The translations under genes were made by a program, and so were the position numbers. Source: a virus. Taken from it: a stretch of 44,774 nt of DNA. This document shows positions 9,765 through 40,495 of the stretch, piece after piece; position 1 is the first letter of the stretch, and each line of letters begins with the position of its first letter. Below the pieces are notes generated by a model, which was not told the DNA's origin, searched no databases, and worked only from the letters and a program-made list of their open reading frames with translations. The DNA lies in the IMG/VR virus record IMGVR_UViG_3300038421_000061, positions 1 to 44,774 of that record; one strand, written 5' to 3'.

Positions 9765-11053
9765 GCGGCCAGCCTCCAATGTGTATCGCGCATCTGCTCC
9801 ACGAGTTCGCCCGTGAACCGGGCGGCCTCGCGCTCCTTGCGGCCGACGTTCGCCGCTATCTGTCCCTCCAGCTCGGACAGCACGATGTGCACGTGCACCG
9901 GCCGGGCCTGCCCGTACCGCCAACACCGCCGGATGGCCTGGTAGTACGCCTCATAGCTGTCGTTGAGTCCGACGAACACCATCCGGGCGCAGTGCTGCCA
10001 GTTGAGGCCGAACGCCGCGATTCCTGGCTTGGTCACAAGGGTCTGTACGTCGCCTGCGGCGAACCCCAGTAGCAGTTCCGCCTTCTGCTCCGGGCTCATC
10101 GAGCCGTGAACGTTCACCGCGCCGGGGATCGCTCGAGCGAGTCGGTCCGCTTCGTCGTTGAGCCCGCACCACAACAGCCACGGCTCGCCAGGCTCAGCGG
10201 CCACCAACTGGGCGGCCCGTTCCACCCTGGCAGCGAGGGTCTCCCGGCGCACCTTCGCCCGACCGCCAACACCGCCCAGGTCGGTCGGGAAAAGCTGCCC
10301 CTCGGCGTGCATGTCGACCGGCACCAACTCCGGCCGGATCGACAACTCGGGCAGCACGTACCCGTCGTCGGGAAATCCGATGTCTGACGGCCGGCGAAGT
10401 GCCACAGCCCAGCCGGACATCCACCGGAACATGGGCGCGCGGGCGTGGCCCTTCGGACGCCACCCCTGATCGTCGTGCACGAAGTAGGTCGAGAGCATCT
10501 CCACCCGGCTAGCTCGGCCGAGGAACTCGGCATGGTTCGCCAACTCGGCCACGTCGTTCGGCGCCGGCGTGGCTGAGCACGCCAGTCGCCGCGGCACGTC
10601 CGCGAACTGGGCTATCAGCCGGTTCCGGGTGGCGCTGGCGAAGTCCTTCAGGATGGACGACTCGTCCAGCACCACCGCGTCCAGCGACTCCGGGTCGAAG
10701 CGGTCCACCATCTCGTAGTTGGTGATCCGGATGCCTTCCGGTTCGCCGTCCTCGCGCACGTACCGCACGGTCAAGCCGATCCGCTCGGCCTCCCGCACCG
10801 TCTGCGCGCACACCGCCAGCGGGGCGACAATCAGCGCCCTGGACCCGGACAGCCGTGCCCATTCCAGCTGCATCCGGGTCTTGCCCAGCCCCGTGTCCGC
10901 CCACACCGCACACCGGCCGGTGCGCACCGCCCACGCCACGATCCGGGCCTGCCACGGGTGCAGGCTCGGATGCACCTCGGCCACGTCGACCGGCGTTCCG
11001 GCAGCACCCGCACGGGCCTGCTTCGCGGCCAGAAACTCATGGTACGGCGTCAC
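9761..11053 (-). CDS. SNF2-like superfamily 2 helicase
   Basis: The 430-residue protein has the SF2 motifs in order: Q-like region SLHPWQARIVAWA, Walker A ADTGLGKT (52-59), motif II LDESS (129-133), motif III SATPAPND (160-167), and a C-terminal domain with motif V-like TKPGIAAFGLNWQ and motif VI YYQAIRRCWRYGQ (about 375-387). These identify an ATP-driven DNA translocase of the SNF2/phage helicase group. GTG at 11053 in a GTGA overlap. It is coupled to the methyltransferase downstream; such helicase-methyltransferase pairs recur in actinophages. It may serve replication, recombination or protection of DNA. Confidence 0.95.
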   Translation of the reverse strand: MTPYHEFLAAKQARAGAAGTPVDVAEVHPSLHPWQARIVAWAVRTGRCAVWADTGLGKTRMQLEWARLSGSRALIVAPLAVCAQTVREAERIGLTVRYVREDGEPEGIRITNYEMVDRFDPESLDAVVLDESSILKDFASATRNRLIAQFADVPRRLACSATPAPNDVAELANHAEFLGRASRVEMLSTYFVHDDQGWRPKGHARAPMFRWMSGWAVALRRPSDIGFPDDGYVLPELSIRPELVPVDMHAEGQLFPTDLGGVGGRAKVRRETLAARVERAAQLVAAEPGEPWLLWCGLNDEADRLARAIPGAVNVHGSMSPEQKAELLLGFAAGDVQTLVTKPGIAAFGLNWQHCARMVFVGLNDSYEAYYQAIRRCWRYGQARPVHVHIVLSELEGQIAANVGRKEREAARFTGELVEQMRDTHWRLAA

Positions 11054-25773: not shown

Positions 25774-26106
25774 TCAGGGCTGGGGTTCCGCGCCAGTCGC
25801 TACGGCTACGGCTTCGACCCGGTCCCGCATCGACCTGCCGCCGTCCGGGCTCAACTCCCGCTCGACCTTGGACAGTCGGAGGCCGTGGTCGGCCTGGGTT
25901 TCCTGGATCTCGGCGAGGCGCACCATCACCCCGGGTCGGGCGGGCACGCCGTCCCGGGCCGGCTCGCCACGCCAGTCGGCGAGGAAGTCCGCGACGGCCG
26001 CGGCGAGCCGGCGCATGGGGCGGGTCAGGTACACCAGCCCGGCCGTGCCTGCAGCGAGTACCGCGATGCCTCCGCAGACCCCGGCGACGATGGCCCAGGC
26101 GGACAT
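25774..26106 (-). CDS. DUF2746-like membrane protein
   Basis: The 110-residue protein has an N-terminal membrane segment (about 3-27, AWAIVAGVCGGIAVLAAGTAGLVYL), then RRLAAAVADFLADWRGEPARDGVPARPGVMVRLAEIQE, a pattern typical of DUF2746 proteins in actinophage lysis regions, and a short coiled coil. ATG at 26106 overlaps the lysin stop by 1 nt (TGATG). It could be an additional lysis membrane protein. Confidence 0.85.
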   Translation of the reverse strand: MSAWAIVAGVCGGIAVLAAGTAGLVYLTRPMRRLAAAVADFLADWRGEPARDGVPARPGVMVRLAEIQETQADHGLRLSKVERELSPDGGRSMRDRVEAVAVATGAEPQP

Positions 26107-27053
26107 CAGTCCCGGACCTGCGCCGCGCCACCCTCGCCGAGGTCCGCCACGGCGTCACGGAAGTCGGCCCGCACCACGGCGAGGCGCTCGTCCACCCCGG
26201 CGAGGATCGCCGCCGTGTCGACCGAGCCGCCACCGGCCGCGATGGTCGCGGCGAGCTGCTCGACAATGCCGCGCAGCGCGGTGACTTCCGCGAGCACCGG
26301 GGCGACCGCAGCCGTGGTGTGTGCGCGGGTGTTGATGTGGTGGACGTCCGTCCACCGAATGAAATCGGCGAGCCGGGTGGTGGTTGGGGCTTTGGCGGCG
26401 TTGACTTCCCGCCGGGCCCATACCGCCTCGGCGGATGCCTGGGCAATTCTGGTGATGTCCTCGGGGGTCACATCATCCTCCTGTCCCCATTGGCCGAAGT
26501 CGGCCTGCCTGCTGCGGCACAGGTCGACGATGCCGCCTGCCAGTGCTATGTGGTTGCGGTACTGCTCGATGTGGTTTCCGGCGTGCCAGTTCCCGCCCGA
26601 CCAGGCGTAGGTCTGCCAGAACCACCGCGCCACTCCATCGCGAGCGGCCCACCGGACACAGTCGTACGACCCGTACACCCCGACCCGCTCTGGGCCGAGG
26701 ACATCCGCGGCGCCGCGCAGAGATGCCGCCACCGCCGGCCACTGGCCTGCGCTGACGTCGAAGTCGACGCTCAGGTAGATCGGCCGGTCGGCCGGCATGC
26801 CGAGCGCGCGGAAGTGCGCCTCCGCCAGCCTCGCCCACTCCTTCCCGGCGTCGAACCCGCCGAGAAGCCCTGACGCGGAACCCTCCACATTGGCCACCAG
26901 CCACAACCCGGCCGACCGCAACGCATCAGCCTCAGCCCGGTTGATGTGCTTCCACGATCCGCCGGCCCCGCCGTAGCGGACCACGAACCGTTTCCCCGCG
27001 GCGAACAGCCCTGAGGGGGATGGATGGTCGGCGGCGTAGTCGACGCCCTCCAT
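26106..27053 (-). CDS. endolysin with DUF1906 glycoside-hydrolase-like domain
   Basis: The 315-residue protein starts MEGVDYAADHPSPSGLFAAGKRFVVRYGGAGG and continues through EADALRSAGLWLVANVEGS, PIYLSVDFDVSAGQWP and VGVYGSYDCVRWA to WFWQTYAWSGGNW, the strand order of the DUF1906 (Rv2525c-like) TIM-barrel family thought to attack peptidoglycan sugars. Residues about 205-315 are helical and coiled-coil-like rather than a known cell-wall-binding repeat. ATG at 27053 overlaps the upstream stop by 1 nt. The frame is open for 370 codons further upstream but only as a shadow of tail genes. Confidence 0.92.
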   Translation of the reverse strand: MEGVDYAADHPSPSGLFAAGKRFVVRYGGAGGSWKHINRAEADALRSAGLWLVANVEGSASGLLGGFDAGKEWARLAEAHFRALGMPADRPIYLSVDFDVSAGQWPAVAASLRGAADVLGPERVGVYGSYDCVRWAARDGVARWFWQTYAWSGGNWHAGNHIEQYRNHIALAGGIVDLCRSRQADFGQWGQEDDVTPEDITRIAQASAEAVWARREVNAAKAPTTTRLADFIRWTDVHHINTRAHTTAAVAPVLAEVTALRGIVEQLAATIAAGGGSVDTAAILAGVDERLAVVRADFRDAVADLGEGGAAQVRD

Positions 27054-27376
27054 CAGGCCAGTACCTCCGCCAGCGCCTCGAACTCCGGCCACGTCGGATG
27101 GTTGGACAACCGGCAGCCGCCGATGTCCCACCAGGGGACCGCGTACTTGTTGGTCTCGTCCGGCATTAGGTCGGTGAACGTGTCGGCGTCCGGGCCGTCC
27201 TTGCCGTACTCGCGGCTGTAGCCGACCGCCGGCCAGGCGGCCAGCATCGACGCGGTGGTGGATGGGCTCGCGGTCGCCCCGAACAGCGTCGCGTAGTCCG
27301 CGGTCAGCGTGCCGGACAACATGACCGGTCGGCCCGCGAGTTGGGCTGGGGCGCGGTCGAGTCTGAGCTGAGGCAT
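27053..27376 (-). CDS. hypothetical late protein, 107 aa
   Basis: ATG at 27376; a weak ribosome site (GAAAGGCATCACCCC) precedes it. It contains SREYGKDGPDADTFTDLMPDETNKYAVPWWDIGGCRLSNHPTWPEFEALAE. The position between a tail appendage protein and the lysin suggests a virion or lysis accessory role. No family recognised. Confidence 0.8.
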   Translation of the reverse strand: MPQLRLDRAPAQLAGRPVMLSGTLTADYATLFGATASPSTTASMLAAWPAVGYSREYGKDGPDADTFTDLMPDETNKYAVPWWDIGGCRLSNHPTWPEFEALAEVLA

Positions 27377-27390
27377 GGGGTGATGCCTTT

Positions 27391-27834
27391 CTATCCGGAG
27401 ATGTAGTCGACGAACGCGAAGGTTGGCCGGGTGCTGGCGGCCTCGCGGCGAATGTTGCCGGTGCCCGCGTTACGCACCAGGCCGATGATGAAGGTCTTCG
27501 CCGCGGTCGACACCGCGACATATTCGTAATACAACAGGTACGGATGACCCACCGAAGACGACGTAGGAATGTGCAGGTTGTCCCCACCGACCTCAGTGCC
27601 TGCGATGGTGTCTTCCCGCAGCCGGATGATGGCCGTGTCGCCGGCGACGGACGACCCGACCCGCACCATGACCGAGATGCCATACGTGCGGCCGGACACC
27701 AGGCTCGCGGTGACCGAGGCGATCTCGGTTTCGGTGGTGGTGATGGACGCGGAGTCGCTTGTCTGTTTGGTGCCGGTCGCGATCCGCTCGCCCGGAAGCC
27801 GGCCGGCGACAAGCTCTTGCCCAGCACTCGACAT
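27391..27834 (-). CDS. tail appendage-like beta-structured protein, 147 aa
   Basis: ATG at 27834, one nt after the stop of the large tail protein. The product is Ser/Thr-rich and all-beta in appearance: SASITTTETEIASVTASLVSGRTYGISVMVRV, TAIIRLREDTIAGTEVGG, and RPTFAFVDYISG. It resembles the small jelly-roll appendage proteins at tail tips of actinophages. A receptor or carbohydrate-binding role is inference. Confidence 0.78.
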   Translation of the reverse strand: MSSAGQELVAGRLPGERIATGTKQTSDSASITTTETEIASVTASLVSGRTYGISVMVRVGSSVAGDTAIIRLREDTIAGTEVGGDNLHIPTSSSVGHPYLLYYEYVAVSTAAKTFIIGLVRNAGTGNIRREAASTRPTFAFVDYISG

Positions 27835-27835
27835 G

Positions 27836-30541
27836 TCACAGTCCTATGTAGGCTCGCGTGGCCAGACGTACCGTCTCGCCGGAGGGGATCGTTTTGGCAA
27901 CGTTGACCGTCGTGCCGACCGTGAAGGTCTGCGGGCTGCTCGCCCCGGAGATGTTGCTGACGCTCAACACGACACCGGCTACCTGGATGTCGAAGTCGAC
28001 AGTGCCGGTCTCCCACAGCGGATAGCCGGCCGCGACCGCCACGGACAGGGACGTCCCGGTCCCCGCGACAAAACTGGATGCTGTGGTGGAGCCGTCCGAC
28101 CCGATCCGGCCATACGTGGCGTGGTCCAACTCGCCAACGATGTACGGCGAGCCGGGCGCGCACACGTAGGTGATCAGCCGGCGGTGCGTGCCGAACGTCT
28201 CACCGATCCCCAGCACCAGCATCGACAGGGTCGGCTGGTTGTCGAGGTTCGCCACGGTGATGACGTCGCCGACGTCGACCAGGGAGGCTGCCTGCGCCAT
28301 GGATGGCACGGCGTCGAGGTCGACGGTGATCTGCGGGTAGCGGGCCTCGTCCACTGTGCCTAGATGCCGGCGCCACTGCGCCCACCCGGGGAGGTCCCCG
28401 TCGGCGGCCACTGCTGCCTCGTGCTCGACGGCGTTGAGGCCCACCCCGTCCGGCGGGTCCTGGATCGACATGCGACCGGTTTCGAGGACGGACCGGGCCT
28501 CCGAGCCACGGGGCCGTTTCGCGGTCACGTCGTTTTCTGTGGGAAGGTCATCGATGAGCGGGTACAGCGGCGGGGAGATACCCTCGGTGGTCATGTCGAG
28601 CGCCAGCACCGGGGTTTGGTCGTAGAGGCTCCGCGTGGTGCGCAGCGCGAACCCCAGATATGAGCGGGGCTCGTAAAGGATGCCCTGATCGGCAAACGCC
28701 GCTTCAGTCAACAGGCTGACGAGCGTTTTCACAGCCTGGCCGGACATCGGTGGCGTGTCCCCGGCAGTGCCGTCCAACGTGAACGTGATGCCCTGCTCGG
28801 TGCACAGCCGCGACATGCGCGTCTCAGCCAGTTCATCCGCCCACCCGACGGCGAGGTTGGCCACTTCGGTGATGTCCAGCCCGTTGCCCGAAGACACTGC
28901 AACGGAAGCCATCTGCGGCTCGGCGCCGCCCGTACCACGGATCAGCACCGGCTTAGTCAGGGTGTCGGCGAAAGACTGCACACCGGACCAGTAGAAGGTC
29001 CCGGTGCCGACCGGGTTCCACTTCACTTCCCAGTTGATGTTCCCGCCGGACTGCACCGCGTGCAGCTGGATAGCCAGCCAGTTGGGGGGTTCGGCTCCCG
29101 CCCCGTAGGCGGAGGTGAATGTATCCAGCAGGGAGCCCGAGGCGTTGTCGTACACCTCGAAGGTGAATGAGGTGCCGTCGATATCCAGGAACCACTCCTG
29201 ATCGACGGTTTCCACCCGGGCGAAGTTGGAATATCCGCCCGGGGTTGTTGGGAATCGGACCTCGAACGTCACAGCCCATTCCGACAACGATGAGCGGACG
29301 GGAAGAGTCATCAGCCCGGTCGACGAGAACGACGCCACCGACGCGGCGCCCACCAGGTCACCCGCATCGGCGCCCAGAGTGACGCTGGAGAATTTCCCCG
29401 CGCTGCCGCCGCCGCGCACCTCCGCCAGGGTCGTGGCAGAGGCACCCTCCTCCAGCGGCCAGTACGCCACCACGTCCGCATCGACCGACAGCCCCCGGTA
29501 CAGCGCCGATCTCAACGGGGAGGCTCGTTGGGACAGCCGCCGCATGATCCCGGCCGCCTCGATGTCACACCACCGGTCACCCCTGCCCGGCGTCACCAAC
29601 GGGTCGATGACGCTGCGGCCGGGCTTCCACGACGCGACCTCGCCGACGAACCGGGCCACGTTCACCGTCAGCTCGTAATCGTCCAATGTGAACTGCGGGT
29701 CGGTGGTGTTGGTGTTTCCGGACGCCCGCCCGCACCGGATCCCAACATGCCCCGGGATGGGCAACGCTGGGTCCACGACATGCAACTGCCAGTCAGGCTC
29801 CGACCCAGCCAGGTCCCAGCACTTGACCCAGATGTCCCTGGCGGTCACCCGGGCCTTCAGCCGCATCGTCTTGCCGTCATACGTCACGCCGGCGGCGTTC
29901 GCCGAACCCAGGGAGGCGCCGGCGGAAGAGTACACGAACAGCCCGATCGAGTTGCTTGTGGTGGCGCCCGCCCGAACCAGCACGTAGGAACTGGAACTTG
30001 TGCCGCGGAACGTCAGGTTGGCCGGCTCCAGGTTGGCGCCCGACGCGAGCGGACAGGTGAAGGTGACCGCCTGCTCGCAGTCCTCGATCTCCAGATCGTC
30101 CAGGTAGCTGAACCGGTACCCGGCATCCACCGGAACGTACATCCGGCCCTGCCCGCCGCTCTGCGACCAGTCCGAGGCCTGCACCGTTCCACCGACGCCA
30201 ACAAGCGTCCACGCCCCCCCTACGTCCGCTGCCGCCCAACCGGAGGCGACCGTGGCCGCGAACGCGGCACGCGCGTCCGCCCACGATCCCGTTGTGGCCT
30301 GCGGCTCCCACCCGATCCGGATCGGCGTGTTCCTGCCGACCAGGCCGTACACGGCCGAGGCCGGGTCGTACGGGTTGTATGAGTCTTCTCGCGCGTCCAA
30401 AGACAACGAACATGACGACGGCACCGGGCCGCCCGCCTCGTTCCGCAACCCCCGGACCGGGGTGATCGACGACCGTGCGGATACCGGAACCGCGTTCCAC
30501 TGGTCGGAGTGGAACAGTTCGACGGTGAAGTTCTGTTTCAC
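27836..30541 (-). CDS. large tail protein with LamG-like domains, 901 aa
   Basis: GTG at 30541 in a GTGA overlap with the tape measure stop. The N-terminal 80 residues (FTVELFHSDQWNAVPV...) resemble distal tail proteins. Two beta-sandwich regions follow: about 115-295 and a clearer LamG/concanavalin-like domain at about 355-545 (VVAYWPLEEG...VASFSSTGLMTLPVRSS...WAVTFEVRF). The C-terminal 300 residues contain a baseplate-like region and an Ig-like end (GVVLSVSNISGASSPQTFTVG). It probably combines distal tail and receptor-contact functions, as only one large tail protein follows the tape measure. Confidence 0.9.
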   Translation of the reverse strand: MKQNFTVELFHSDQWNAVPVSARSSITPVRGLRNEAGGPVPSSCSLSLDAREDSYNPYDPASAVYGLVGRNTPIRIGWEPQATTGSWADARAAFAATVASGWAAADVGGAWTLVGVGGTVQASDWSQSGGQGRMYVPVDAGYRFSYLDDLEIEDCEQAVTFTCPLASGANLEPANLTFRGTSSSSYVLVRAGATTSNSIGLFVYSSAGASLGSANAAGVTYDGKTMRLKARVTARDIWVKCWDLAGSEPDWQLHVVDPALPIPGHVGIRCGRASGNTNTTDPQFTLDDYELTVNVARFVGEVASWKPGRSVIDPLVTPGRGDRWCDIEAAGIMRRLSQRASPLRSALYRGLSVDADVVAYWPLEEGASATTLAEVRGGGSAGKFSSVTLGADAGDLVGAASVASFSSTGLMTLPVRSSLSEWAVTFEVRFPTTPGGYSNFARVETVDQEWFLDIDGTSFTFEVYDNASGSLLDTFTSAYGAGAEPPNWLAIQLHAVQSGGNINWEVKWNPVGTGTFYWSGVQSFADTLTKPVLIRGTGGAEPQMASVAVSSGNGLDITEVANLAVGWADELAETRMSRLCTEQGITFTLDGTAGDTPPMSGQAVKTLVSLLTEAAFADQGILYEPRSYLGFALRTTRSLYDQTPVLALDMTTEGISPPLYPLIDDLPTENDVTAKRPRGSEARSVLETGRMSIQDPPDGVGLNAVEHEAAVAADGDLPGWAQWRRHLGTVDEARYPQITVDLDAVPSMAQAASLVDVGDVITVANLDNQPTLSMLVLGIGETFGTHRRLITYVCAPGSPYIVGELDHATYGRIGSDGSTTASSFVAGTGTSLSVAVAAGYPLWETGTVDFDIQVAGVVLSVSNISGASSPQTFTVGTTVNVAKTIPSGETVRLATRAYIGL

Positions 30542-32055
30542 CGCGTTCCCCCGAGGGCGAGGTCACCGCGGCCGCGGATCGCGCCTTCCAACAGCTCGAC
30601 CAGGGCCTCTGCCAGGCGGGAGCCGTCGCCGCGGATCTCGATGACGATCGGTTCCCGGGACTGCCCGGCCGGGGTGACCCGTTCGCCGGCCTGCAGCAGG
30701 GCGAGCATTTCCTGACCCGGGGCGCCGGGCACGATCCCACCACCGTGGAAGGTGGGCAGCCGCGGTGCGGAGATCGAGGCGCCGCCGATGCCCGGCACCC
30801 AGCCGGGCACCGACCAGTGGAGCCGGCCAACCGTGTTGTTCCAGGCCCGGCTGATGAAGTTGAACGCCGCCCGCCACGGCGCGGTGATGATGTTGAACAG
30901 GCCTGAGAACGCGGATCGCAGCCGCCGGGGAATGGCGCCCAATTGGTTCCCGAGCCAGGAGAACGCGCCACCCAACCAATCCCAGACAGCCTGTGCCGCG
31001 CTCCGTATCCCGCGCCACGCCACCCGCCACGCCGTTTGAAACCACGTCGTCTTCGTCGCTATGAGGATGATGATGGCCACGAGCGCGGCTATCGCAACGA
31101 TGATGATGCCGATCGGGTTCGCGGTCAGGGCCACGTTCCACAACCACTGCGCCGCGGTGGCGATCCCGGTGGCGACCGATTGCGCTATCGTGACGGCGCG
31201 GGCGGCTACTGATGCAGCAGTCGACTTGATTGTGGCCAGACTGAGCGCGCTGTGCGCCATGGCCAGAAGGTTGGTCGCACCCACCACGCCCAGCAGGAGC
31301 GGGGTGACGGAGTCGATGGCGGCGCCCCATTTTGACATCGGCCCTGAGTCCAGCGCGTGTTGCGCCTCGGCCAGGTCGAGGGCGGCGTCCTTCCCGTCCC
31401 GGGTGGCCTGGGTGGCGTCCAGTGTCGCCTGTCGGCCGTCTTCCAGCGCCTGCGCAGCATCTGCTCTGGCCTGCTCGGCGTCCACGTCGGCCTGAGTGAC
31501 ATCGGCCGTTGCCTGCTTAAGATCGATCAGGGCCTGTTTCGCCTCTGTCGAGTTCTTGCCGTGTTCCTTGACCGCCTTGGCGTATTCCTTGTCGGCCTCG
31601 GAGGCGTCGAGGGCCGCCTGCTCCAGATCGATCTGCGCCTGCTCCATGTCAACGTCGGCTTGCTTCCCGTCGATCATCGACTGTGTCAGGTCGAGCTGGG
31701 CCTGCTTCAGGTCCCGCATGGCTTGCTTCGCGTCGATGCCCGCCTGCTCGACGTCCGCGAGCGCGCGGGCCTTTTCCGCAGCCACGCGCCGGCCGCGGTC
31801 CATGAAGTCAGCCAGCCCGGTAACCGCACCCCCGGCGTCGCCGATCGCGGCGGACATGCCGGCGGCGGCGGCGCCGAGCCGACCGATCCCCGACTCCAGC
31901 GTGGACGCGGGGCGGTCGGCCTCCTGCATCTTGCTGCCGGTCTTCGCCGCTTCGTCGCCGACCGTCTTGACGGCGCCTTCGGCTTTCTTGGCTGCTGCGG
32001 TGAGCTTGTCGGCGTCTCCAGCGAAGGTGAGTTTGACCTCGTTCTTCGACGCCAT
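30538..32055 (-). CDS. tail tape measure protein
   Basis: The 505-residue protein has an N-terminal region, a long coiled coil (about 85-240) built of repeats such as DLKQAQLDLTQ, VDMEQAQIDLEQAALDAS and ADVTQADVDAEQARADA, hydrophobic helices (about 265-350) including the hallmark LTANPIGIIIVAIAALVAIIILIA, and a Gly-rich C-terminus (FHGGGIVPGAPGQEM). Tape measure length sets tail length; at about 0.15 nm per residue this predicts a short tail near 75 nm. ATG at 32055 overlaps the upstream stop by 1 nt. Confidence 0.93.
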   Translation of the reverse strand: MASKNEVKLTFAGDADKLTAAAKKAEGAVKTVGDEAAKTGSKMQEADRPASTLESGIGRLGAAAAGMSAAIGDAGGAVTGLADFMDRGRRVAAEKARALADVEQAGIDAKQAMRDLKQAQLDLTQSMIDGKQADVDMEQAQIDLEQAALDASEADKEYAKAVKEHGKNSTEAKQALIDLKQATADVTQADVDAEQARADAAQALEDGRQATLDATQATRDGKDAALDLAEAQHALDSGPMSKWGAAIDSVTPLLLGVVGATNLLAMAHSALSLATIKSTAASVAARAVTIAQSVATGIATAAQWLWNVALTANPIGIIIVAIAALVAIIILIATKTTWFQTAWRVAWRGIRSAAQAVWDWLGGAFSWLGNQLGAIPRRLRSAFSGLFNIITAPWRAAFNFISRAWNNTVGRLHWSVPGWVPGIGGASISAPRLPTFHGGGIVPGAPGQEMLALLQAGERVTPAGQSREPIVIEIRGDGSRLAEALVELLEGAIRGRGDLALGGTR

Positions 32056-33366: not shown

Positions 33367-33771
33367 TCAGCTCCCTTGACCGAAGATGTCGAGTTCGAAA
33401 ATCGCAGCGTGGTAGTCGGTGTTCTGCCAGTTCAGGACGTCGAACTCGACCCGGGTCACCCGCAGCGAATCGAACGCCGTGTAGGTGCCGGCTTCCACGA
33501 CGGCCTTGACTGATCTGGCGCCGGACCCATCGCAGTACGCCCCGATTCGGGTCATCACCGTGCGATCCGACACCCGCCCAACGACCACGAGCAGCGGCCA
33601 CGTAATCCGGTCCGAGCCGCGCCCATACGTCTGGTCGAAGTCGATGGAGTCGGGGAGCACGAGGATTCCGGCCGGCGGGGTGATGGAGTCTGGCGGGCCC
33701 TTGTGGCACCGCAGGCCGTCGATGGTTTCCAGTTGGGTGACGATCTCGCCGGCAACGTCGTCCACGTTCAC
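33367..33771 (-). CDS. tail terminator-like protein, 134 aa
   Basis: GTG at 33771 in a GTGA overlap. The helix-strand order (DDVAGEIVTQLETIDGLRCHKGPPDSITPPAGILVLPDSIDFDQTYGRG... ITWPLLVVVGRVSDRTVMTRIGAYCDG... YHAAIFELDIFG) matches the tail terminator/tail tube-capping group (gpU-like) found just before the tail tube gene. Identity is by pattern and position. Confidence 0.75.
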   Translation of the reverse strand: MNVDDVAGEIVTQLETIDGLRCHKGPPDSITPPAGILVLPDSIDFDQTYGRGSDRITWPLLVVVGRVSDRTVMTRIGAYCDGSGARSVKAVVEAGTYTAFDSLRVTRVEFDVLNWQNTDYHAAIFELDIFGQGS

Positions 33772-34655
33772 GCGAGACCGTCCAGAACGTACGGGCCCAG
33801 CAGGTCCTCAATGTCACTGTCGAACCTGGATACCCGGATCGGGCCCTGGTCGGACCAGCCGGCAACACCCTCTGGCGAGTCCCGGCGCATGAACCGGCGG
33901 TTGGCCAGCAGCCAGGTTGCCTCAGACACGTTCGCCGGGACGGTTGGCCACCCCCATGGCGCGGTTATCCGAACCCGCGTGTTGGTGCACCAGCAGCCGT
34001 AATCCCGGCGCAACGCGGTGATCGCGTGCCCGCGCGCGAGGGCATTCTCCGGCTCGGTGAAGTAGTCGGTGACCGCCGTCCATGTCGTTCCGTCGCCGAC
34101 CTCGACAACGAGTCCGGTGGTGGAGCCGATGTCGTCGACCAGGAGCAGTTCACCGTCCCGGTCGCGGGTGACCCGTCCGCGGGTGCGGTAGGTGCGGGCA
34201 GTTGCGGAGGAGTCGCGGTAGAAGTGCCCACCCTCACCCCTGCATCGGACGTCGATAGCGCGGGACGCGCGCCACAGCCGGGTGAGGAACGCGGCGTCAT
34301 CCACGGTGTCCGTGACGCGTCGAGCGTCCTTCAGCTCCTCCAGCCCGGCGTAGATGCGGGAGAGGTCGGTGGTGAAGACCTGCCAGGTGCCGGCGACCAC
34401 ATCGGACGCGGTGCCGGTGCCGGTCCATACGTAGATCCATAGCCCGTTCTCAGAACAGGCAACGTCCTTGGTGTAGACCCCGGTAGCTGACTTGGTGATC
34501 TGCCCGGCGGCGTATGTGTAGGTGGTGGCAGTCCCGGACGGCGTGGTGATAGTCAGGGACACGGTCGTCGGATCGGTCGGCGTCCCGTTGACGCTGAAGG
34601 TGTTCGTCAGCGTGGCCAGTTCGGACGCGGACTCGTAGAAGACGGTGGCGGTCAT
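33768..34655 (-). CDS. head-tail connector protein with N-terminal Ig-like domain, 295 aa
   Basis: ATG at 34655, directly following the repeat-protein stop. Residues 1-95 are a beta-sandwich-like Thr-rich domain (FSVNGTPTDPTTVSLTITTPSGTATTYTYAAG); residues about 100-295 are helical with ELKDARRVTDTVDDAAFLTRLWRASRAIDVRC, like head-tail adaptor proteins (gp6-like), interrupted by a beta insert around TTGLVVEVGDGTTWTAV. The fusion of an Ig-like decoration to a connector is unusual. Call by position and partial pattern. Confidence 0.7.
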   Translation of the reverse strand: MTATVFYESASELATLTNTFSVNGTPTDPTTVSLTITTPSGTATTYTYAAGQITKSATGVYTKDVACSENGLWIYVWTGTGTASDVVAGTWQVFTTDLSRIYAGLEELKDARRVTDTVDDAAFLTRLWRASRAIDVRCRGEGGHFYRDSSATARTYRTRGRVTRDRDGELLLVDDIGSTTGLVVEVGDGTTWTAVTDYFTEPENALARGHAITALRRDYGCWCTNTRVRITAPWGWPTVPANVSEATWLLANRRFMRRDSPEGVAGWSDQGPIRVSRFDSDIEDLLGPYVLDGLA

Positions 34656-36116
34656 TCAGCCTCCTACGGTCGGTGTGGACGTGGCCGGCGTGGTCACGGC
34701 GGCGGCAGAGGTGCGCCCGGCCGTCACCGACGGGACGGATGTGCGCCCCGCGGTCACCGCGGGTGTGGAGGTGGCGCGGGCGGTTACGGCCCGGGGAAGG
34801 GCGGTGTCCGTCTCGGTCGCGAGCCCGGCAAGGGCCCGCTTGTGCGCGGATGCGGCGAGCGCCGCGGCGGTTTGGGTCGCAAGCCCACCGGTGGCGACCT
34901 TGCGCGCCGTACCGCCTATGGCGGCGTCGGTTTCGACGGCCAGACCGCCGGAAACGACTGTGGTTCCGCCGACCGACCCCATCAGCGCCGTGTCGGTTTC
35001 CGACGCAAGCCCGCCCGTCGCGGTCTTGCGCGCAGAGCCGGCCAGCCCGCTATCCGCCTCGGCGGCGAGCCCGCCGGCCACCGTCTTGGATGCCGCGCCG
35101 GCCAGTCCACTGTCGGTCTCAGTGGCCAGCCCACCGGCCGCGGTCTTGGTGGCCGCGCCGGCTAGAGCCGTCTCGGTCGAGGTGGCCAGACCACCGGACA
35201 CCGTCTTGACGACAGCGCCCGGGAGAGCCGTCTCGGTTGAAGATGCCAGCCCGCCGGCGGCCGTCTTCCGCGCGGTGCCGGCGAGAGCTGTCTCAGTCGA
35301 CGCGGCGAGCCCACCCGCGGCCTGCTTGGCGGCCGTCCCGGTGAGTGCCGTGTCGGTGGTGGTAGCTAGGTCCCCCGCGGCCGTCTTGCGGGCGGAGCCG
35401 GTGAGTGCCGTGTCGGTTTCGGTGGATAGCCCGCCGTTGACGGTGGTTCCACCGGCGGGGAGCAGGAGGATCGAGCCACCGTTGAGTCGGTCCGACACCG
35501 ACACGCTGAAGGTCTTGTTTCCGGTTGCCGACGCGTCCGGCAGGGCCCGGACGCTACACGCCGCGGCGGCGTTCGCGTTCGTGCCGTGTGTCGACTGTGG
35601 CTCGCTGACCCCGCCGTCGTAGGTCAGTTCGGTGTAGTCGGTCGGGGCCGTGAATGTCTGCGTCGAGCCCGCAGCTATCCGCGAAAATTCGAAGATCAGA
35701 TGCACGCCGCCGGTCGCCGCCGGGTCAACCCCGGTGACGGCCAGAGATGAGGCACCCGACGCGGTGGTCTGGGTGGGCGCCTCTTCGACGATGTCCGTCG
35801 AGTCCCCGCCGGAGTAGCACACCGCGATGATCGCCCATCGTCGGGTGGTCCCGGTGGAGATGGTGTACGGGCCGGCCTCGCTCGCGCCGCACTTCTTCTT
35901 CCACGTCGAGGTGGTAATCGTGCTGCCGGTGTTCAGGTCGTTGTGGACCCGAACCAGGTCACCGGCGGTGTTGGAGTGGGTGTCGCCACCACCGGCCGAT
36001 ATGACCCCGAACAGAAGCCAGTCGTTTTCCTCCATCCCGGTTGGGGAGATGGATATGGATGTGGCGCCATTGGATGTGGCCGTGTCGCTGGACAGCGTCC
36101 GGCGAGCGAGGGCCAT
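34656..36116 (-). CDS. tandem-repeat structural protein, 486 aa
   Basis: ATG at 36116. Residues 1-225 form a Ser/Thr/Gly-rich beta domain (TSISISPTGMEENDWLLFGVIS, WAIIAVCYSGGDS, GGSILLLPAGG). Residues 229-442 are eleven tandem units of 20 residues, consensus GLATETDTALTGSARKTAAG, with one 21-residue unit. A tail of about 40 residues has a further 10-residue repeat (VTAGRTSVPSVTAGRTS). ETDTAL-type repeats occur in phage head or tail fibre proteins; an extended rod is likely. It is read after two glycosyltransferases and a methyltransferase and before the connector. Thr/Ser-rich repeats could carry sugar. Function is inference. Confidence 0.85.
   Translation of the reverse strand: MALARRTLSSDTATSNGATSISISPTGMEENDWLLFGVISAGGGDTHSNTAGDLVRVHNDLNTGSTITTSTWKKKCGASEAGPYTISTGTTRRWAIIAVCYSGGDSTDIVEEAPTQTTASGASSLAVTGVDPAATGGVHLIFEFSRIAAGSTQTFTAPTDYTELTYDGGVSEPQSTHGTNANAAAACSVRALPDASATGNKTFSVSVSDRLNGGSILLLPAGGTTVNGGLSTETDTALTGSARKTAAGDLATTTDTALTGTAAKQAAGGLAASTETALAGTARKTAAGGLASSTETALPGAVVKTVSGGLATSTETALAGAATKTAAGGLATETDSGLAGAASKTVAGGLAAEADSGLAGSARKTATGGLASETDTALMGSVGGTTVVSGGLAVETDAAIGGTARKVATGGLATQTAAALAASAHKRALAGLATETDTALPRAVTARATSTPAVTAGRTSVPSVTAGRTSAAAVTTPATSTPTVGG
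34791..35432 (-). repeat. eleven 60-bp tandem coding repeats
   Basis: In-frame degenerate repeats with a 60-bp period (one of 63 bp) encoding the ETDTAL units of the gene at 34656. Substitutions are mostly silent or conservative, which suggests expansion followed by purifying selection. Copy number may vary between related phages. Confidence 0.9.
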
Positions 36117-36119
36117 GGG

Positions 36120-36563
36120 TCAGCTCGCGCGGTAGAAGCCGGCAGAGTTGAAGCTGAAGACCAAGTCGTTGCCGTCGGGAGTGGCGACGAAGTCCAGCTT
36201 CACCAGCGGGATCAGGTCGGCGTCGGTGCCGCCCGTGGTGTCCGGGTCGTAGCAGATCACGAGTCCCGACACGGCATTGCCGGACGCGGCGGTCCAGGTG
36301 ATGTCCGCGGCGTCCACGTCGGTGCGGTTGTTGGTGTCGTCCACCGTGACGGTGACGGACCCCAGGGTCTTCCTGCCCATTGTGGACTGCTCGTTGTTCG
36401 CGGCGGCCAGCAATGCCGACAGCGTGTCGTAGTCCTGCAAGGTGGCATCAGCCTCGATGCCGGACGTCTCGATCGGTACCGCGATCAAGGCATCATCCGA
36501 CGCCGGAAGCCCCGCGTAGTAGGCGGCTTTACCCTTGGCGATGTTGAAAACGATGTCACCCAC
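36120..36563 (-). CDS. conserved structural-region protein, 147 aa
   Basis: GTG at 36563 with AAGGAG 7 nt upstream and an 8-nt overlap (GTGGGTGA). MGDIVFNIAKGKAAYYAGLPASDDALIAVPIETSG, NNEQSTMGRKTLGSVTVTVDD and ITWTAASGNAVSGLVICYDPD define a protein common in actinophage head regions. Beta-rich, probably a virion decoration or tail-adjacent protein; function unknown. Confidence 0.88.
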   Translation of the reverse strand: MGDIVFNIAKGKAAYYAGLPASDDALIAVPIETSGIEADATLQDYDTLSALLAAANNEQSTMGRKTLGSVTVTVDDTNNRTDVDAADITWTAASGNAVSGLVICYDPDTTGGTDADLIPLVKLDFVATPDGNDLVFSFNSAGFYRAS

Positions 36564-37287
36564 GGGCCATCTCCTTCTCTCTGAGCGTCCGCACGATCCC
36601 TGCGTCCATGGCCAACTGGGTGGACCGCCACCGGAGATAGGCCCGCTGGTCCCGCTCGTACTGCGCCGCCTGGTTGACCCTGCGGTATCCGTCGTCGAGC
36701 TTTCCCTTGCCGGCGAAGGGATGCATGTGTTCGACCAGCACATCGGGCAGGTACCGCAGACAGCCGGCCGCCCGGCCCAGATCCATGACGGAGTTGTCGC
36801 AGTACATGTGCTCCACGTCGGCCGGCACCATCCGGCCCAGCGCCCGGACGATGTCCGCGGTCATCGCCCACTGCGTGGGGAGCTTGGCGCCCTGGAATCC
36901 GTCGTTGCCGTACACGATTCCCGTGCGCATCTCGCGCAGCTCTGTGAGGTACCGCCCGACCCATCCGCGGGTGCGGGGCAGGTGATCGTCGCCCATGAAG
37001 GCGAGCGCGTAGTGGTGGTGTGACGCGAGCCTCGCCGCTCGCCGATTGAGCTTCGGCACCAGCGGCAGCCAGGACGGAGCGAAATGCATCGACGCCTGGG
37101 CATCCGGAGAGCCGGCGAACAGATCGAAGGCGTTGAGGTACTCGTCTTCGGCCGGGTCGTCGGCATCTACGACAAACTGCAACTCGGCGCCCTGCTCGAA
37201 TGCCCCGGTCGCACGCCAAGCGTTTACCACCGTGGGCACCGATTCAGGCCTACCCCGGGACGGGACGATGACCAGAAGCTCAGCCAC
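36556..37287 (-). CDS. glycosyltransferase-like protein, 243 aa
   Basis: GTG at 37287 with an 8-nt overlap. ELLVIVPSRGRPESVPTVVNAW and ELQFVVDADDPAEDEYLNAF give a GT-A-like nucleotide-sugar-binding half; LAFMGDDHLPRTRGWVGRYL supplies a DDH metal motif of the DxD type. It follows a methyltransferase and a second glycosyltransferase. The cassette probably modifies a virion protein. Cell-surface or DNA targets are alternatives. Confidence 0.87.
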   Translation of the reverse strand: MAELLVIVPSRGRPESVPTVVNAWRATGAFEQGAELQFVVDADDPAEDEYLNAFDLFAGSPDAQASMHFAPSWLPLVPKLNRRAARLASHHHYALAFMGDDHLPRTRGWVGRYLTELREMRTGIVYGNDGFQGAKLPTQWAMTADIVRALGRMVPADVEHMYCDNSVMDLGRAAGCLRYLPDVLVEHMHPFAGKGKLDDGYRRVNQAAQYERDQRAYLRWRSTQLAMDAGIVRTLREKEMARG

Positions 37288-37918
37288 GGCGCCACCATCC
37301 GAACGGCGAGTGCGAGATCGGGTTCATGCCCTCGACGTCGAGGTCCCGGATCCATCCCTGAGCGCCGATCAGTTCGGCTTCGATCGCGGGCAGCGGCCCA
37401 CCCTCTTCGGGGATGCGTGCGCCGAACCGGCGTGCTTCCTCTGGCTGGACTAGGTCGGCGAGCGCGTCCTCAACAACGAGGTAGCAGCCGGGGGTGACGA
37501 GGGGCGCGTACGCCTGGATTTCGGCCCGGACGTGCGCGAAGTGGTGATCTGAGTCCAGGGTCACCATGCAGCGCCGTCCGCCGGCCAGCGCGCGGACCTG
37601 CCCGACGGCGGCCGGCGAGATGGAGTCCCCGGTGACGACGGTGACCCGCGGCCACTGCTGCGCTGTCGGTGACGGAGCGGTGATGTCCACAGTCACCACG
37701 TCGACGCCGAACGTGTCGGCGAACCATGCCGCGGTGCCGCCCCACCTCGTTCCCGTCTCCACGATGACTTCGGGGCTGGTGGTTTCGATGATGTGCCGGT
37801 ATCGGTCCAGGTCTCCGGCGGATTTCCACATCCTCAGCCCGGAGTGGAACTGGGTGTAGCCGTGCCGGTGGCCGAAGCTGCCGATGCTCTTCCCGATGTC
37901 GATGGGGGTGTCAGCCAT
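37280..37918 (-). CDS. SAM-dependent methyltransferase (CmcI-like)
   Basis: The 212-residue protein has PEVIVETGTRWGGTAAWFADTFG (motif I), VDVVTVDITA, RVTVVTGDSISP and CMVTLDSDHHFAHVRAEI...LVVEDALAD, which match class I methyltransferases of the CmcI/cephalosporin hydroxylase-like group often found in sugar-modification clusters. ATG at 37918 overlaps the upstream stop by 8 nt (ATGGCTGA). It probably methylates a sugar added by the flanking glycosyltransferases. Confidence 0.86.
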   Translation of the reverse strand: MADTPIDIGKSIGSFGHRHGYTQFHSGLRMWKSAGDLDRYRHIIETTSPEVIVETGTRWGGTAAWFADTFGVDVVTVDITAPSPTAQQWPRVTVVTGDSISPAAVGQVRALAGGRRCMVTLDSDHHFAHVRAEIQAYAPLVTPGCYLVVEDALADLVQPEEARRFGARIPEEGGPLPAIEAELIGAQGWIRDLDVEGMNPISHSPFGWWRRG

Positions 37919-38672
37919 CGGCGCGTCCCGCCACCGCGGCTGCCGCTTCTGACAGCAGCCTGTGTTCGAGGAATTGGGGCTCGCCGACCCACACCTGTTT
38001 CGCGTGGGTTGTTTTCACTGCGGTATCGACGTGGATGGGGATGCCGACGGAGCCGAGCCGGTAACAGAACGACAGGTCTTCGGACACGAACCGGCCGTCG
38101 GGGTAGCGGACCGGGTCGAACCAGGAATCCCCGTGCTCGGCGCGGACCTTCTCCGCGGCGGTGCGGTGGATCAGCAGGCACGCCGCTCCGGTGCCGGCGA
38201 CGCGGATCACTTCGCCGCGGGTGTAGTCGGCGGCGACCCGGAAGCCCATCTTCCCGGACGGGTCCTGCGACCAGCCGTAGATGGTGGGAAATGGCGTGGC
38301 TCGATACCCGCCGTACCCGTCCGGGTCGCCCAACTTCAGCCCGAAACACAGCGCGCCGACCACGGGCCGCTCCACCGGGTCGGCGGAGTCCACGAGCAGG
38401 TCGACGGTGTTCGCAGCAAAGCCCATGTCGGTGTCGACCGTCCACAGCCAGTCCTCTGACGCCTGGTCGAGGAAATGGGCCATGGTCTTGTTCCGTGCTT
38501 CGACCAGCCCACCGGTGCCGCAGCGCATCATCAGCGGCCCCGCGGAGGCGAACAGCCGCTGATTGTGGGCCGCGTCGTAGTTCACCAGCGACATGAGCGA
38601 CTGGTGAAAGCTGTGTTCGATGTGGGTCGCCGGGTGCAGGTAGGCGACCAGCACTTTCCCGGGTTCAGTCAC
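37911..38672 (-). CDS. glycosyltransferase, 253 aa
   Basis: GTG at 38672, 8-nt overlap (GTGACTGA). It has LVAYLHPATHIEHSFHQSLMSLV, GGLVEARNKTMAHFLDQASEDWLWTVDTDMGF with a DTD metal motif, and TGAACLLIHRTAAEKVRAEHG...VSEDLSFCYRLGSVGIPIHVD with the ED acid pair of GT-A enzymes. It is the first gene of the three-gene modification cassette after the capsid region. Confidence 0.9.
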   Translation of the reverse strand: MTEPGKVLVAYLHPATHIEHSFHQSLMSLVNYDAAHNQRLFASAGPLMMRCGTGGLVEARNKTMAHFLDQASEDWLWTVDTDMGFAANTVDLLVDSADPVERPVVGALCFGLKLGDPDGYGGYRATPFPTIYGWSQDPSGKMGFRVAADYTRGEVIRVAGTGAACLLIHRTAAEKVRAEHGDSWFDPVRYPDGRFVSEDLSFCYRLGSVGIPIHVDTAVKTTHAKQVWVGEPQFLEHRLLSEAAAAVAGRADG

Positions 38673-38931
38673 GGATGATGTTGCCGTCGGCGTCGCGGGG
38701 CAGCTTGGGCCGTCCGGGTCCTCTCACGTCGCGCATCTCGCCGGGGGCGCGGGTGGCGCGCTCCACCGGCCGGTACTGGCGGCCGGCGACCTTCTCTGGT
38801 TCGTCAGTGAACAGGTCGGGCCGCTCCCGCACGAGGCCGGAGTCGGCGTCCCACGCCTGGTCTTTCTTGAGCAGGGTCTTTCCGCCGGACCACGACACGG
38901 ACGCGGTTTGGTTGGCGTACACGACAGCCAT
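38665..38931 (-). CDS. small conserved capsid-region protein, 88 aa
   Basis: ATG at 38931 with an AAGAAGG ribosome site 6 nt upstream gives MAVVYANQTASVSWSGGKTLLKKDQAWDADSGLVRERPDLF and a Pro/Arg-rich tail. I know near-identical patterns as unknown proteins directly downstream of actinophage capsid genes. It may be a head-completion or decoration protein. Confidence 0.86.
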   Translation of the reverse strand: MAVVYANQTASVSWSGGKTLLKKDQAWDADSGLVRERPDLFTDEPEKVAGRQYRPVERATRAPGEMRDVRGPGRPKLPRDADGNIIRD

Positions 38932-39019: not shown

Positions 39020-40495
39020 TTAGGACGTCTTGTTTTGCAGCATCCGGAAGCCGAGGTCATTCACGGAATCCGACCCGACCCGGGCCCACGCGTACCAGGC
39101 CCGCTCACCGGTCGGCCGGTTGTTCGTCACGTCGAAGACGTGCGGCACCAACTCGATGTTCATGCCGGCGCGCTGCGCGACGACGAAGTTGAACCAGTCG
39201 CCGACGATGAGCAGGTTCGCCGCGGTGGTACCGGCCGGCAGATCGTCCAGGTAGTCGTTTTCGAACATCCGCCGGCCCTTCAATCTCACCACGCCCTCTT
39301 CGGTGAAGTTCACCGTGAACGCGGAGCCGGCGTCGGTGCCGAGCTGCTGAATGTCGCCGTTGACGCCGGTGTGCGACATCCACGCGGTGCGCTGTGCGAT
39401 GGCCGGGTTCCGATAGCGGATCGGCAGCGCCGCCCACAGACCGTTGATGTCGCCGGCGCCGATGGTGCCCGCCGTGGTGGTGGCCACTTCGACGTTGGTG
39501 TTGGCGTCCAACGCGGTTTCGATACCGGTGGGTTCGTCCGAGCCGGAGCCGTGGGTGAGCTTGTCCACCAGCAGCTCGACGTAGCCGGAGCCGAGGAGCC
39601 GTTCCATCTCCATCGCGAAGCCGGGGTAGTCCATCCCGACCTCGATCGAGTAGGGGATGTACCCGTCCGCCTTGTACGTGGTGACGCTGGGCTGCGCGAG
39701 GGTCGGCGATCCGTCGGTGGTGGCTGTTGCTTCCGCCCGGAACTTCCACGTCACACCCGCGCTGGAGACGCCCTTCCACACGTCGGTGGTGATGGTCTCC
39801 ACCCTCGCGAGGCCGAGGATGTCGTTGGGGTGGCCCTGCGCGGTCAGGATGATCGTCGGGTCGATCAGGACCGGCACGCCGTAGCCGCCGGCCCCGTCCG
39901 TGCCGATGCTCATGGCCCGGAACTCCTCGAACGCCTGAAGCGCCCGCCCCTCTTCAGGGGTGAGCACCGGTGTCGGGGATGTGACGAGCTTCATGAACGC
40001 TGACCGGTAGTTCTTGTTCTCGGTCAGCAGGAGCCGCGTCGCGATGATCGCCCCGTTGGTGTCCCGGTTCGAGGACCGGATCAGGTCCGCCGCGCGCTTC
40101 TTCGCGTCGTCGCGCAGATGCGCCGTCGACTCCTCATCGTCGAGCACGGTTAGCGCCCGCGACCGCACTTCCTGCGGCGACAGCCCGCGCACGTTCGCGG
40201 TGTCGAAAGGCTTGATTTCCTTGCCGATCCTGGTGGACTGCCACCGGGCCCGGGACTCCTGGAGTCGGATCTGCCGCTCGGCGACCTGCAGCCGCTCCAC
40301 GGTGCGCTGGTGCTCGGCGTCCAGCTCTTCCCAACGCGCCTGCTGCTCCTCGGTGAGCGGCTTGTCTCCGGCCGCGTCGTTGAGCGCCTTCAGTGCTCCC
40401 TCGATCCCACCCCGCAGGGACTCCAGGTTTTCGATGTTCGGTTCGGTCTCGGTGGCGAGCCGCAGCTCGTCCAGTGTGGTCTGGTCCACGGTCAT
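39020..40495 (-). CDS. major capsid protein, HK97 fold
   Basis: The 491-residue protein has an N-terminal scaffold-like delta region (about 1-105, helical: LESLRGGIEGALKALNDAAGD... WEELDAEHQRTVERLQVAERQ) followed by the HK97 capsid domain (about 175-491) with GAGGYGVPVLIDPTIILTAQ, KFRAEATATTDGSPTLAQPSVTTYKADGYIPYS, GMDYPGFAMEMERLL, and a C-terminal NFVVAQRAGMNIELVPHV. ATG at 40495 in an ATGA overlap with the protease. The delta region should be removed by the protease during maturation. Confidence 0.97.
   Translation of the reverse strand: MTVDQTTLDELRLATETEPNIENLESLRGGIEGALKALNDAAGDKPLTEEQQARWEELDAEHQRTVERLQVAERQIRLQESRARWQSTRIGKEIKPFDTANVRGLSPQEVRSRALTVLDDEESTAHLRDDAKKRAADLIRSSNRDTNGAIIATRLLLTENKNYRSAFMKLVTSPTPVLTPEEGRALQAFEEFRAMSIGTDGAGGYGVPVLIDPTIILTAQGHPNDILGLARVETITTDVWKGVSSAGVTWKFRAEATATTDGSPTLAQPSVTTYKADGYIPYSIEVGMDYPGFAMEMERLLGSGYVELLVDKLTHGSGSDEPTGIETALDANTNVEVATTTAGTIGAGDINGLWAALPIRYRNPAIAQRTAWMSHTGVNGDIQQLGTDAGSAFTVNFTEEGVVRLKGRRMFENDYLDDLPAGTTAANLLIVGDWFNFVVAQRAGMNIELVPHVFDVTNNRPTGERAWYAWARVGSDSVNDLGFRMLQNKTS

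What the first reader, a model, noticed from the sequence alone, without database searches (positions are those of the whole stretch)
36120..38672. Glycosyltransferase-methyltransferase-glycosyltransferase cassette next to a Thr/Ser-rich repeat protein inside the head operon
Seen: two GT-A-like enzymes (37911, 36556) flank a CmcI-like methyltransferase (37280), all overlapping by 8 nt, inserted between the capsid region and the connector. The next-but-one gene encodes eleven T/S-rich ETDTAL repeats. Known: actinophage glycosyltransferases near structural genes have been shown to glycosylate capsid or tail proteins. Inference: the virion carries an O-methylated glycan, with the repeat protein as a possible acceptor.
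Basis: partly seen in the sequence, partly recalled or inferred. Interest (0 to 1): 0.75.

Follow-up and report, generated by a model that had tools for sequence, protein, structure and literature searches.

The report
Phage cassette that sugar-coats the capsid
This uncultured phage of actinobacteria carries, welded to its capsid gene, two sugar-adding enzymes and a sugar-methylating enzyme that most likely coat the virus shell with a methylated glycan, and the same block sits beside the capsid gene in dozens of related uncultured phages.

Summary
Two GT-A glycosyltransferases (GT1 37911-38672, GT2 36556-37287) flank a CmcI-type O-methyltransferase (37280-37918) on the minus strand, between capsid and head-tail adaptor genes. 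All joints, including those to the flanking head genes, overlap by 8 nt; catalytic residues are intact.

The virion-glycan reading is supported by inference. A capsid-based search blind to the cassette found GT1 directly after the capsid gene in 55 of 60 usable loci. GT2 (38/60) occurs only with GT1, and the methyltransferase (14/60) only with GT2. GT1-MT and GT1-GT2 fusions occur. GT1 shares the capsid's evolutionary history; GT2 much less. I infer GT1 primes the capsid, GT2 extends, the methyltransferase caps. Composition matches mycobacteriophage cassettes (Che8, Corndog) reported to glycosylate capsid and tail tube, but the families differ; phage phiAsp2 links the two.

The repeat protein as acceptor is not supported: no other cassette locus among about 200 has it, and its relatives lack the cassette.

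Beyond the finding: the slot after GT1 is variable, holding nucleotide-sugar epimerases, other methyltransferases, further glycosyltransferases and oxygenases. Acceptor residue, sugar and activity remain untested. New variant of a known kind.

The parts
37911..38672 (-). GT1: soluble GT-A glycosyltransferase, 253 aa; proposed to put the first sugar on the capsid
   Evidence: phrog_34859 glycosyltransferase E 9e-16; AF2 pLDDT 92.1; VIA Z 19.1 to STIV A197 (2.4 A over 175 residues), about 18 to lysyl hydroxylase LH3, 15.8 to COLGALT1; D80, D82, E198, D199 invariant and H223 at least 90% conserved in 26 sequences; no TM segment
37280..37918 (-). MT: RMNT_CmcI-type SAM-dependent O-methyltransferase, 212 aa; proposed to methylate the glycan
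   Evidence: PF04989 105 bits; profile matches CmcI 2bm8 at E 7e-8; SAM motif E54-G56-G60 and acidic residues D122, E150, D151, aligned with the CmcI metal-site region, invariant in 25 sequences
36556..37287 (-). GT2: second GT-A glycosyltransferase, 243 aa; proposed to extend the glycan
   Evidence: phrog_2675 235 bits over that profile's N-terminal part; AF2 pLDDT 96.0; VIA Z 17.5 to WrtF fucosyltransferase, 17.1 to ppGalNAc-T2; D100, D101, H102, D129, H187 invariant in A5, H189 at least 90%
38665..38931 (-). SM: small (88 aa) conserved head protein between capsid gene and GT1
   Evidence: phrog_9538 head-tail connector, weak; next to the capsid gene with or without the cassette; SD-like GAAAGAAGG before the ATG
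39020..40495 (-). Major capsid protein, HK97 type; most likely acceptor
   Evidence: PF05065 E 2e-20, phrog_10; distance correlation with GT1 rho 0.85
36120..36563 (-). P4: virion-associated protein (phrog_26662), overlaps GT2 by 8 nt; independent of the cassette
   Evidence: phrog_26662 E 9e-59; 61 viral relatives, GT1 in only one
34656..36116 (-). Repeat protein with eleven 20-aa ETDTAL-type repeats; probably a head or neck fibre, not specifically linked to the cassette
33768..34655 (-). Head-tail adaptor; far border of the cassette slot
   Evidence: phrog_442 E 2e-22

Best explanation
The three genes form a late-expressed virion-glycosylation unit. GT1 transfers the first sugar from a host nucleotide-sugar onto the capsid (the major capsid protein or its small partner SM). 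GT2 adds a further sugar to it. The CmcI-type enzyme O-methylates a hydroxyl of that glycan, using SAM and probably Mg2+. Shown here: enzyme families, folds, intact catalytic residues, translational overlaps, conserved capsid linkage, nested occurrence, fusions, and joint inheritance of GT1 with the capsid gene. Inferred: that the enzymes are active, that the acceptor is the capsid, the order of steps, and that the methyl goes on the sugar rather than on protein.
For: Composition: two GT-A enzymes plus a CmcI/rhamnosyl-O-methyltransferase-type MT. Coupling: 8-nt overlaps running from the SM gene through GT1, MT and GT2 into P4; 4/8-nt overlaps recur in relatives. Linkage in both directions: capsid-profile search gives GT1 in 55/60 usable loci; GT1-profile search of bacterial genomes gives this capsid family just upstream in 14/19 loci with enough upstream DNA. 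Nesting: GT2 only with GT1, MT only with GT2. Fusions: GT1-MT in 26 loci, GT1-GT2 in 11, and GT2 with a Methyltransf_24 domain in phiAsp2 pas34. Shared history: MCP-GT1 rho 0.85, partial 0.68 after portal, SM and TerL, while GT2, often adjacent to GT1, gives 0.13 with MCP and 0.09 with GT1. Precedent: Corndog has an O-MT and GTs between portal and protease, and its authors proposed methyl and glycan modification of the capsid (PMC4351075); Che8 gp110 and Corndog gp38 are described as essential for capsid glycosylation (PMC12363180); glycans sit at capsid and tail-tube C-termini (PMC12619734). Che8 gp108 itself is a GT + TylF-type MT fusion. phiAsp2 carries this GT2 family in one cassette with a Che8 gp110 homologue.
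Against: No biochemistry. None of the three enzymes is detectably homologous to the Che8 or Corndog enzymes in my sequence searches. Ser/Thr at the capsid C-terminus does not differ between GT1-positive and GT1-negative loci. SM correlates with MCP about as well as GT1 does once length is equalised (0.70 v 0.74), so block inheritance by linkage could explain part of the signal. In Streptomyces phages Evy and Comrade, GT2 relatives lie away from head genes beside a nucleotidyltransferase.
Confidence: 0.72

Rival explanations
1. The acceptor is the repeat protein (34656-36116) or P4: a glycosylated head fibre.
For: Same operon, 11 repeats, 28% Ser+Thr; P4 overlaps GT2 by 8 nt; other large fibre-like proteins sit at this spot in some cassette phages.
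Against: No other cassette or capsid locus among about 200 has the repeat protein; the closest relative L005 goes from GT2 straight to the adaptor; P4 relatives have GT1 in 1 of 61 loci and repeat relatives in 0 of 10; L271 has capsid-P4-repeat-adaptor without the cassette.
Confidence: 0.1
2. The enzymes modify a host surface polymer or receptor (serotype conversion or superinfection exclusion).
For: Many temperate phages do this; the window has a phage integrase; CmcI-type MTs share a Pfam family with rhamnosyl O-methyltransferases (family name).
Against: No TM segments and no flippase or lipid-carrier GT seen beside the cassette; the genes are embedded in the late head operon with translational overlaps; GT1 shares its history with the capsid gene.
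Confidence: 0.1
3. The enzymes glycosylate and methylate phage DNA bases.
For: PHROG 2675 is labelled DNA methyltransferase; phage GTs can hypermodify DNA (mentioned in PMC12619734).
Against: That label is carried by a GT + O-MT fusion in phiAsp2; the window MT is CmcI-type, not a DNA methylase; Pfam scans of 20 larger window ORFs showed no hydroxymethyl-pyrimidine pathway (not exhaustive).
Confidence: 0.04
4. The glycan sits on the tail tube or another virion protein rather than on the capsid shell.
For: Tail-tube C-termini are glycosylated in mycobacteriophages; the putative tail-tube protein here ends in VTSTNQ, and several relatives end in Thr/Ser.
Against: GT1 is linked to and co-inherited with the capsid gene; tail-tube genes are several genes away.
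Confidence: 0.12

Closest known systems
Virion-glycosylation cassettes of mycobacteriophages Che8 (gp108-110) and Corndog/Cluster O (gp35-38)
   Same: GTs plus O-methyltransferase encoded together in actinophages, in Corndog inside the head operon; reported to modify capsid and tail tube. Che8 gp108 shows the same GT + MT fusion logic.
   Different: MT is RMNT_CmcI here and TylF/Methyltransf_24 there; the window GTs do not match theirs. Here the cassette follows the capsid gene; in Corndog it lies between portal and protease, in Che8 near the far genome end.
Actinoplanes phage phiAsp2 pas33-pas35
   Same: pas34 N-half is the window GT2 family (47.7% identity); the cassette includes an MT domain and further GTs.
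   Different: MT domain is Methyltransf_24; pas35 is a Che8 gp110 relative; no GT1 family found; lies after tail genes.
STIV A197 (GT-A glycosyltransferase of an archaeal virus)
   Same: Best structural match to GT1, Z 19.1; STIV's capsid protein is glycosylated and A197 is an essential candidate enzyme (PMC10551542).
   Different: 15% identity, unrelated virus; fold similarity shows no function.
CmcI / rhamnosyl O-methyltransferase family (PF04989)
   Same: MT is a clear member.
   Different: Known members (own knowledge) act in cephamycin or glycolipid synthesis; this branch is phage-encoded beside capsid genes.

Membership tests
Actinophage virion-glycosylation cassette (Che8/Corndog kind) | GT(s) and O-methyltransferase encoded together in one phage | tested here: met
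Actinophage virion-glycosylation cassette (Che8/Corndog kind) | Homologue of the capsid GT Che8 gp110 / Corndog gp38 | tested here: not met
   BLAST and HMM comparison found no match with the window enzymes; the homologue is present in phiAsp2
Actinophage virion-glycosylation cassette (Che8/Corndog kind) | Glycan present on capsid or tail-tube protein | not testable with these tools
   needs virion mass spectrometry
RMNT_CmcI methyltransferases (PF04989) | Score above Pfam gathering threshold | tested here: met
   105.2 v 23.2 bits
RMNT_CmcI methyltransferases (PF04989) | SAM motif and acidic metal-site residues | tested here: met
   D122, E150, D151 invariant and aligned with the CmcI region ending E186-D187
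RMNT_CmcI methyltransferases (PF04989) | Sugar O-methyltransferase activity | not testable with these tools
   needs enzyme assay
GT-A fold glycosyltransferases | GT-A fold | tested here: met
   high-confidence models; Z 13-19 to many GT-A enzymes
GT-A fold glycosyltransferases | DxD-type motif and C-terminal His | tested here: met
   GT1 D80/D82, E198/D199, H223; GT2 D100/D101, H187
Pfam Glycos_transf_2 (PF00535) | Sequence match to the Pfam model | tested here: not met
   no Pfam hit for GT1; none relevant for GT2
Serotype-conversion (Gtr) systems | Membrane-bound GT with flippase and lipid-carrier GT | tested here: not met
   no TM segment in the three enzymes; cassette neighbours are head genes

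The most novel reading that the evidence does not exclude
A capsid lineage spread through uncultured actinophages carries a built-in priming glycosyltransferase whose history follows the capsid gene, followed by an exchangeable slot of extending and tailoring enzymes (GT2, CmcI- or TylF-type methyltransferases, nucleotide-sugar epimerases, GT-B enzymes, oxygenases). The phages would thus switch capsid sugar 'serotypes' by swapping genes, as bacteria do with O-antigens.
Probability: 0.35. Interest if true: 0.78.

Novelty: new variant of a known kind. Interest (0 to 1): 0.62.

Why it matters
Virion glycosylation in phages is known from a few mycobacteriophages, where it shields particles from antibodies. 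In soil that cannot be the original purpose. Here a different set of enzyme families is attached to one capsid lineage in dozens of uncultured phages and in prophages of Spongiactinospora, Streptomyces and Amycolatopsis genomes, which makes it testable. It would suggest that capsid glycosylation arose more than once and is ordered as priming, extension and capping, and it gives a set of natural variants for asking what a phage capsid glycan is for. The GT1 family has almost no relative among isolated phages, so annotation pipelines are likely to miss it.

Tried and rejected
Megablast of the head region against isolated phages: no match. GT1 tblastn against isolated phages: only two ct2KA10 records; MT: none; repeat protein: none. 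Capsid C-terminal Ser/Thr as the acceptor signature: no difference between 105 GT1-positive and 13 GT1-negative capsids; some of the 13 are contigs that end soon after the capsid gene, so their GT1 status is not firm. Closer correlation of GT1 than SM with the capsid: nearly vanishes when columns are equalised, so I claim only block inheritance. Random sample of 396 actinobacterial genomes for GT1: only the seed genome hit, so the family is rare in sequenced hosts. Streptomyces phage Hiyaa gp10-gp11, between capsid and a P4 homologue, gave no Pfam hits and no GT or CmcI-type match in PHROGs. PDB sequence searches with GT1 and GT2 profiles gave nothing meaningful. Freeman et al. 2023 is not held, so its results are cited through papers that describe it.

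Full report
What is there. The window is a whole 44,774-base IMG/VR virus record, GC-rich, with a phage integrase. On the minus strand the late operon reads TerL, portal, protease, capsid protein (MCP), a small 88-aa protein (SM), GT1, MT, GT2, P4, repeat protein, head-tail adaptor, then tail genes. Four joints in a row, SM/GT1, GT1/MT, MT/GT2 and GT2/P4, each overlap by 8 nt, so the cassette is probably coupled in translation to head genes on both sides.

Enzymes. MT is a Pfam RMNT_CmcI member (105 bits). Its profile finds the CmcI crystal structures (E 7e-8), and its acidic residues D122, E150 and D151 are invariant in 25 sequences. GT1 and GT2 have no Pfam glycosyltransferase hit but match PHROG glycosyltransferases and fold as GT-A enzymes with high confidence. 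GT1's nearest structures are STIV A197 (Z 19.1), lysyl hydroxylase LH3 and COLGALT1; GT2's are WrtF fucosyltransferase and ppGalNAc-transferases. DxD-type and metal-site residues are conserved in both. None has a membrane segment.

Conservation of the arrangement. Searches of uncultured viral contigs with MT, GT2 and GT1 returned about 100 loci, in many of which the order TerL-portal-MCP-SM-GT1-MT-GT2-adaptor recurs. To avoid circularity I searched with the capsid profile alone. Of 79 capsid loci, 60 had enough downstream sequence: GT1 follows in 55, GT2 in 38 and MT in 14. GT2 never occurs without GT1, and MT never without GT2. Five loci are empty sites where no GT1 lies between SM and the adaptor. 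Isolated relatives (Gordonia phage ThankyouJordi, M. abscessus prophiGD02-2) also lack the cassette between capsid and adaptor. Caveats: the capsid profile was seeded from cassette-bearing phages and only the 80 best hits were kept, so these fractions describe this capsid clade; the loci share ancestry, so the Fisher values overstate significance. In the other direction, a GT1-profile search of GTDB genomes found 21 loci, mostly in actinobacteria; this capsid family lies just upstream in 14 of the 19 with room.

Fusions. GT1-MT fusions occur in 26 loci and GT1-GT2 fusions in 11. In phiAsp2, pas34 joins the GT2 family to a Methyltransf_24 domain, a different MT family. The parts therefore probably act in one pathway.

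Shared history. In 47 loci dereplicated at 90% capsid identity, pairwise distances of MCP and GT1 correlate at rho 0.85 (bootstrap 0.75-0.90) against 0.58 for portal and 0.29 for TerL; the partial correlation given portal, SM and TerL is 0.68. GT2, which often adjoins GT1 and has similar length and divergence, gives 0.13 with MCP and 0.09 with GT1 in 32 loci. In the 28 loci that have all four proteins MCP-GT1 is 0.88, and GT2 correlates more (0.41 with MCP, 0.47 with GT1). With equal column numbers SM (0.70) is about as tied to MCP as GT1 (0.74). So MCP, SM and GT1 form one inheritance block, while GT2 and MT are more loosely attached. This fits GT1 touching the capsid protein and GT2/MT acting on sugar; linkage alone remains possible.

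Tailoring slot. In relatives the space between GT1 and the adaptor holds other genes. Among 73 unassigned ORFs there, 16 match nucleotide-sugar epimerases, 6 a Methyltransf_23-type MT, 5 a GT-B-like glycosyltransferase, 4 a 2OG-Fe(II) oxygenase, and 2 a TylF MT of the type seen in Corndog and Che8 (members listed). The slot looks like a glycan-diversifying locus. The ORFs were chosen by a mechanical rule, so some are not real genes.

Acceptor. The repeat protein is an unlikely specific acceptor. None of the other roughly 200 cassette or capsid loci has it; the closest relative L005 has GT2 abutting the adaptor; its ten relatives elsewhere have no detectable cassette in the DNA held; P4 relatives have GT1 in 1 of 61. 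L271 has capsid-P4-repeat-adaptor without the cassette. Many of these contigs are short, so absence there is not proof. A direct test for the capsid C-terminus was inconclusive.

Known biology. Corndog-type phages encode an O-MT and GTs between portal and protease, and in 2015 their authors suggested methyl and glycan modification of the capsid (PMC4351075). Later papers report glycosylated Che8, Corndog and Myrna virions, with Che8 gp110 and Corndog gp38 described as essential for capsid glycosylation, and a glycan shield against antibodies (PMC12363180, PMC12619734, PMC11256854). Che8 gp108 is itself a GT fused to a TylF-type MT. The window cassette works like these but is not a homologous member by my tests. 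phiAsp2, with the window's GT2 family and a gp110 relative in one cassette, is the bridge.

Verdict. A capsid-linked virion-glycosylation cassette with a methyl cap, 0.72 likely; acceptor most likely the MCP/SM block; repeat protein not supported. New variant of a known kind.

Noticed in passing
PHROG 2675; phiAsp2 pas34 (L002:8995-10785): Labelled DNA methyltransferase, but the protein is a GT-A glycosyltransferase-family domain fused to a Methyltransf_24 domain and was noted as a putative O-methyltransferase by its depositors; the label misleads annotation of GT2 relatives.
   Followed up: yes
L109, L110, L137, L138, L140, L146, L167, L183, L184, L187, L199 downstream of GT1: Nucleotide-sugar epimerase/dehydratase-like genes in the slot after GT1, suggesting the phage also controls sugar identity.
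   Followed up: partly
L114:9316-9993, L136:11176-11829, L174:5204-5860: ORFs that look like the 2OG-Fe(II) oxygenases counted (assigned to these loci by eye) next to GT1, whose nearest folds include the hydroxylysine-glycosylating enzymes LH3 and COLGALT1; hydroxylation before glycosylation is a speculative possibility.
   Followed up: no
L271:8001-13388; L211:1-1601: P4 + long repeat protein + adaptor module next to the capsid gene, or repeat protein + adaptor, without the cassette: an independent head or neck appendage module.
   Followed up: partly
L003:8357-10069, L004:8372-10090 (Streptomyces phages Evy, Comrade): GT2-family gene in a GT-GT-HldE-like nucleotidyltransferase triad away from head genes.
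   Followed up: partly
L128:5876-7376 (Nocardioides prophage): Corndog-type O-methyltransferase and GT genes together with a GT1-family gene in one prophage.
   Followed up: partly
window 26106-28163: Tail-region protein with an Rv2525c-like glycoside hydrolase domain (PF08924).
   Followed up: no
window 8811-9926: N6/N4 DNA methylase (PF01555) in the early region.
   Followed up: no
window 31555-31713: 21-bp repeats inside a long coiled-coil-looking ORF (30538-32055), possibly a short tape-measure protein.
   Followed up: no
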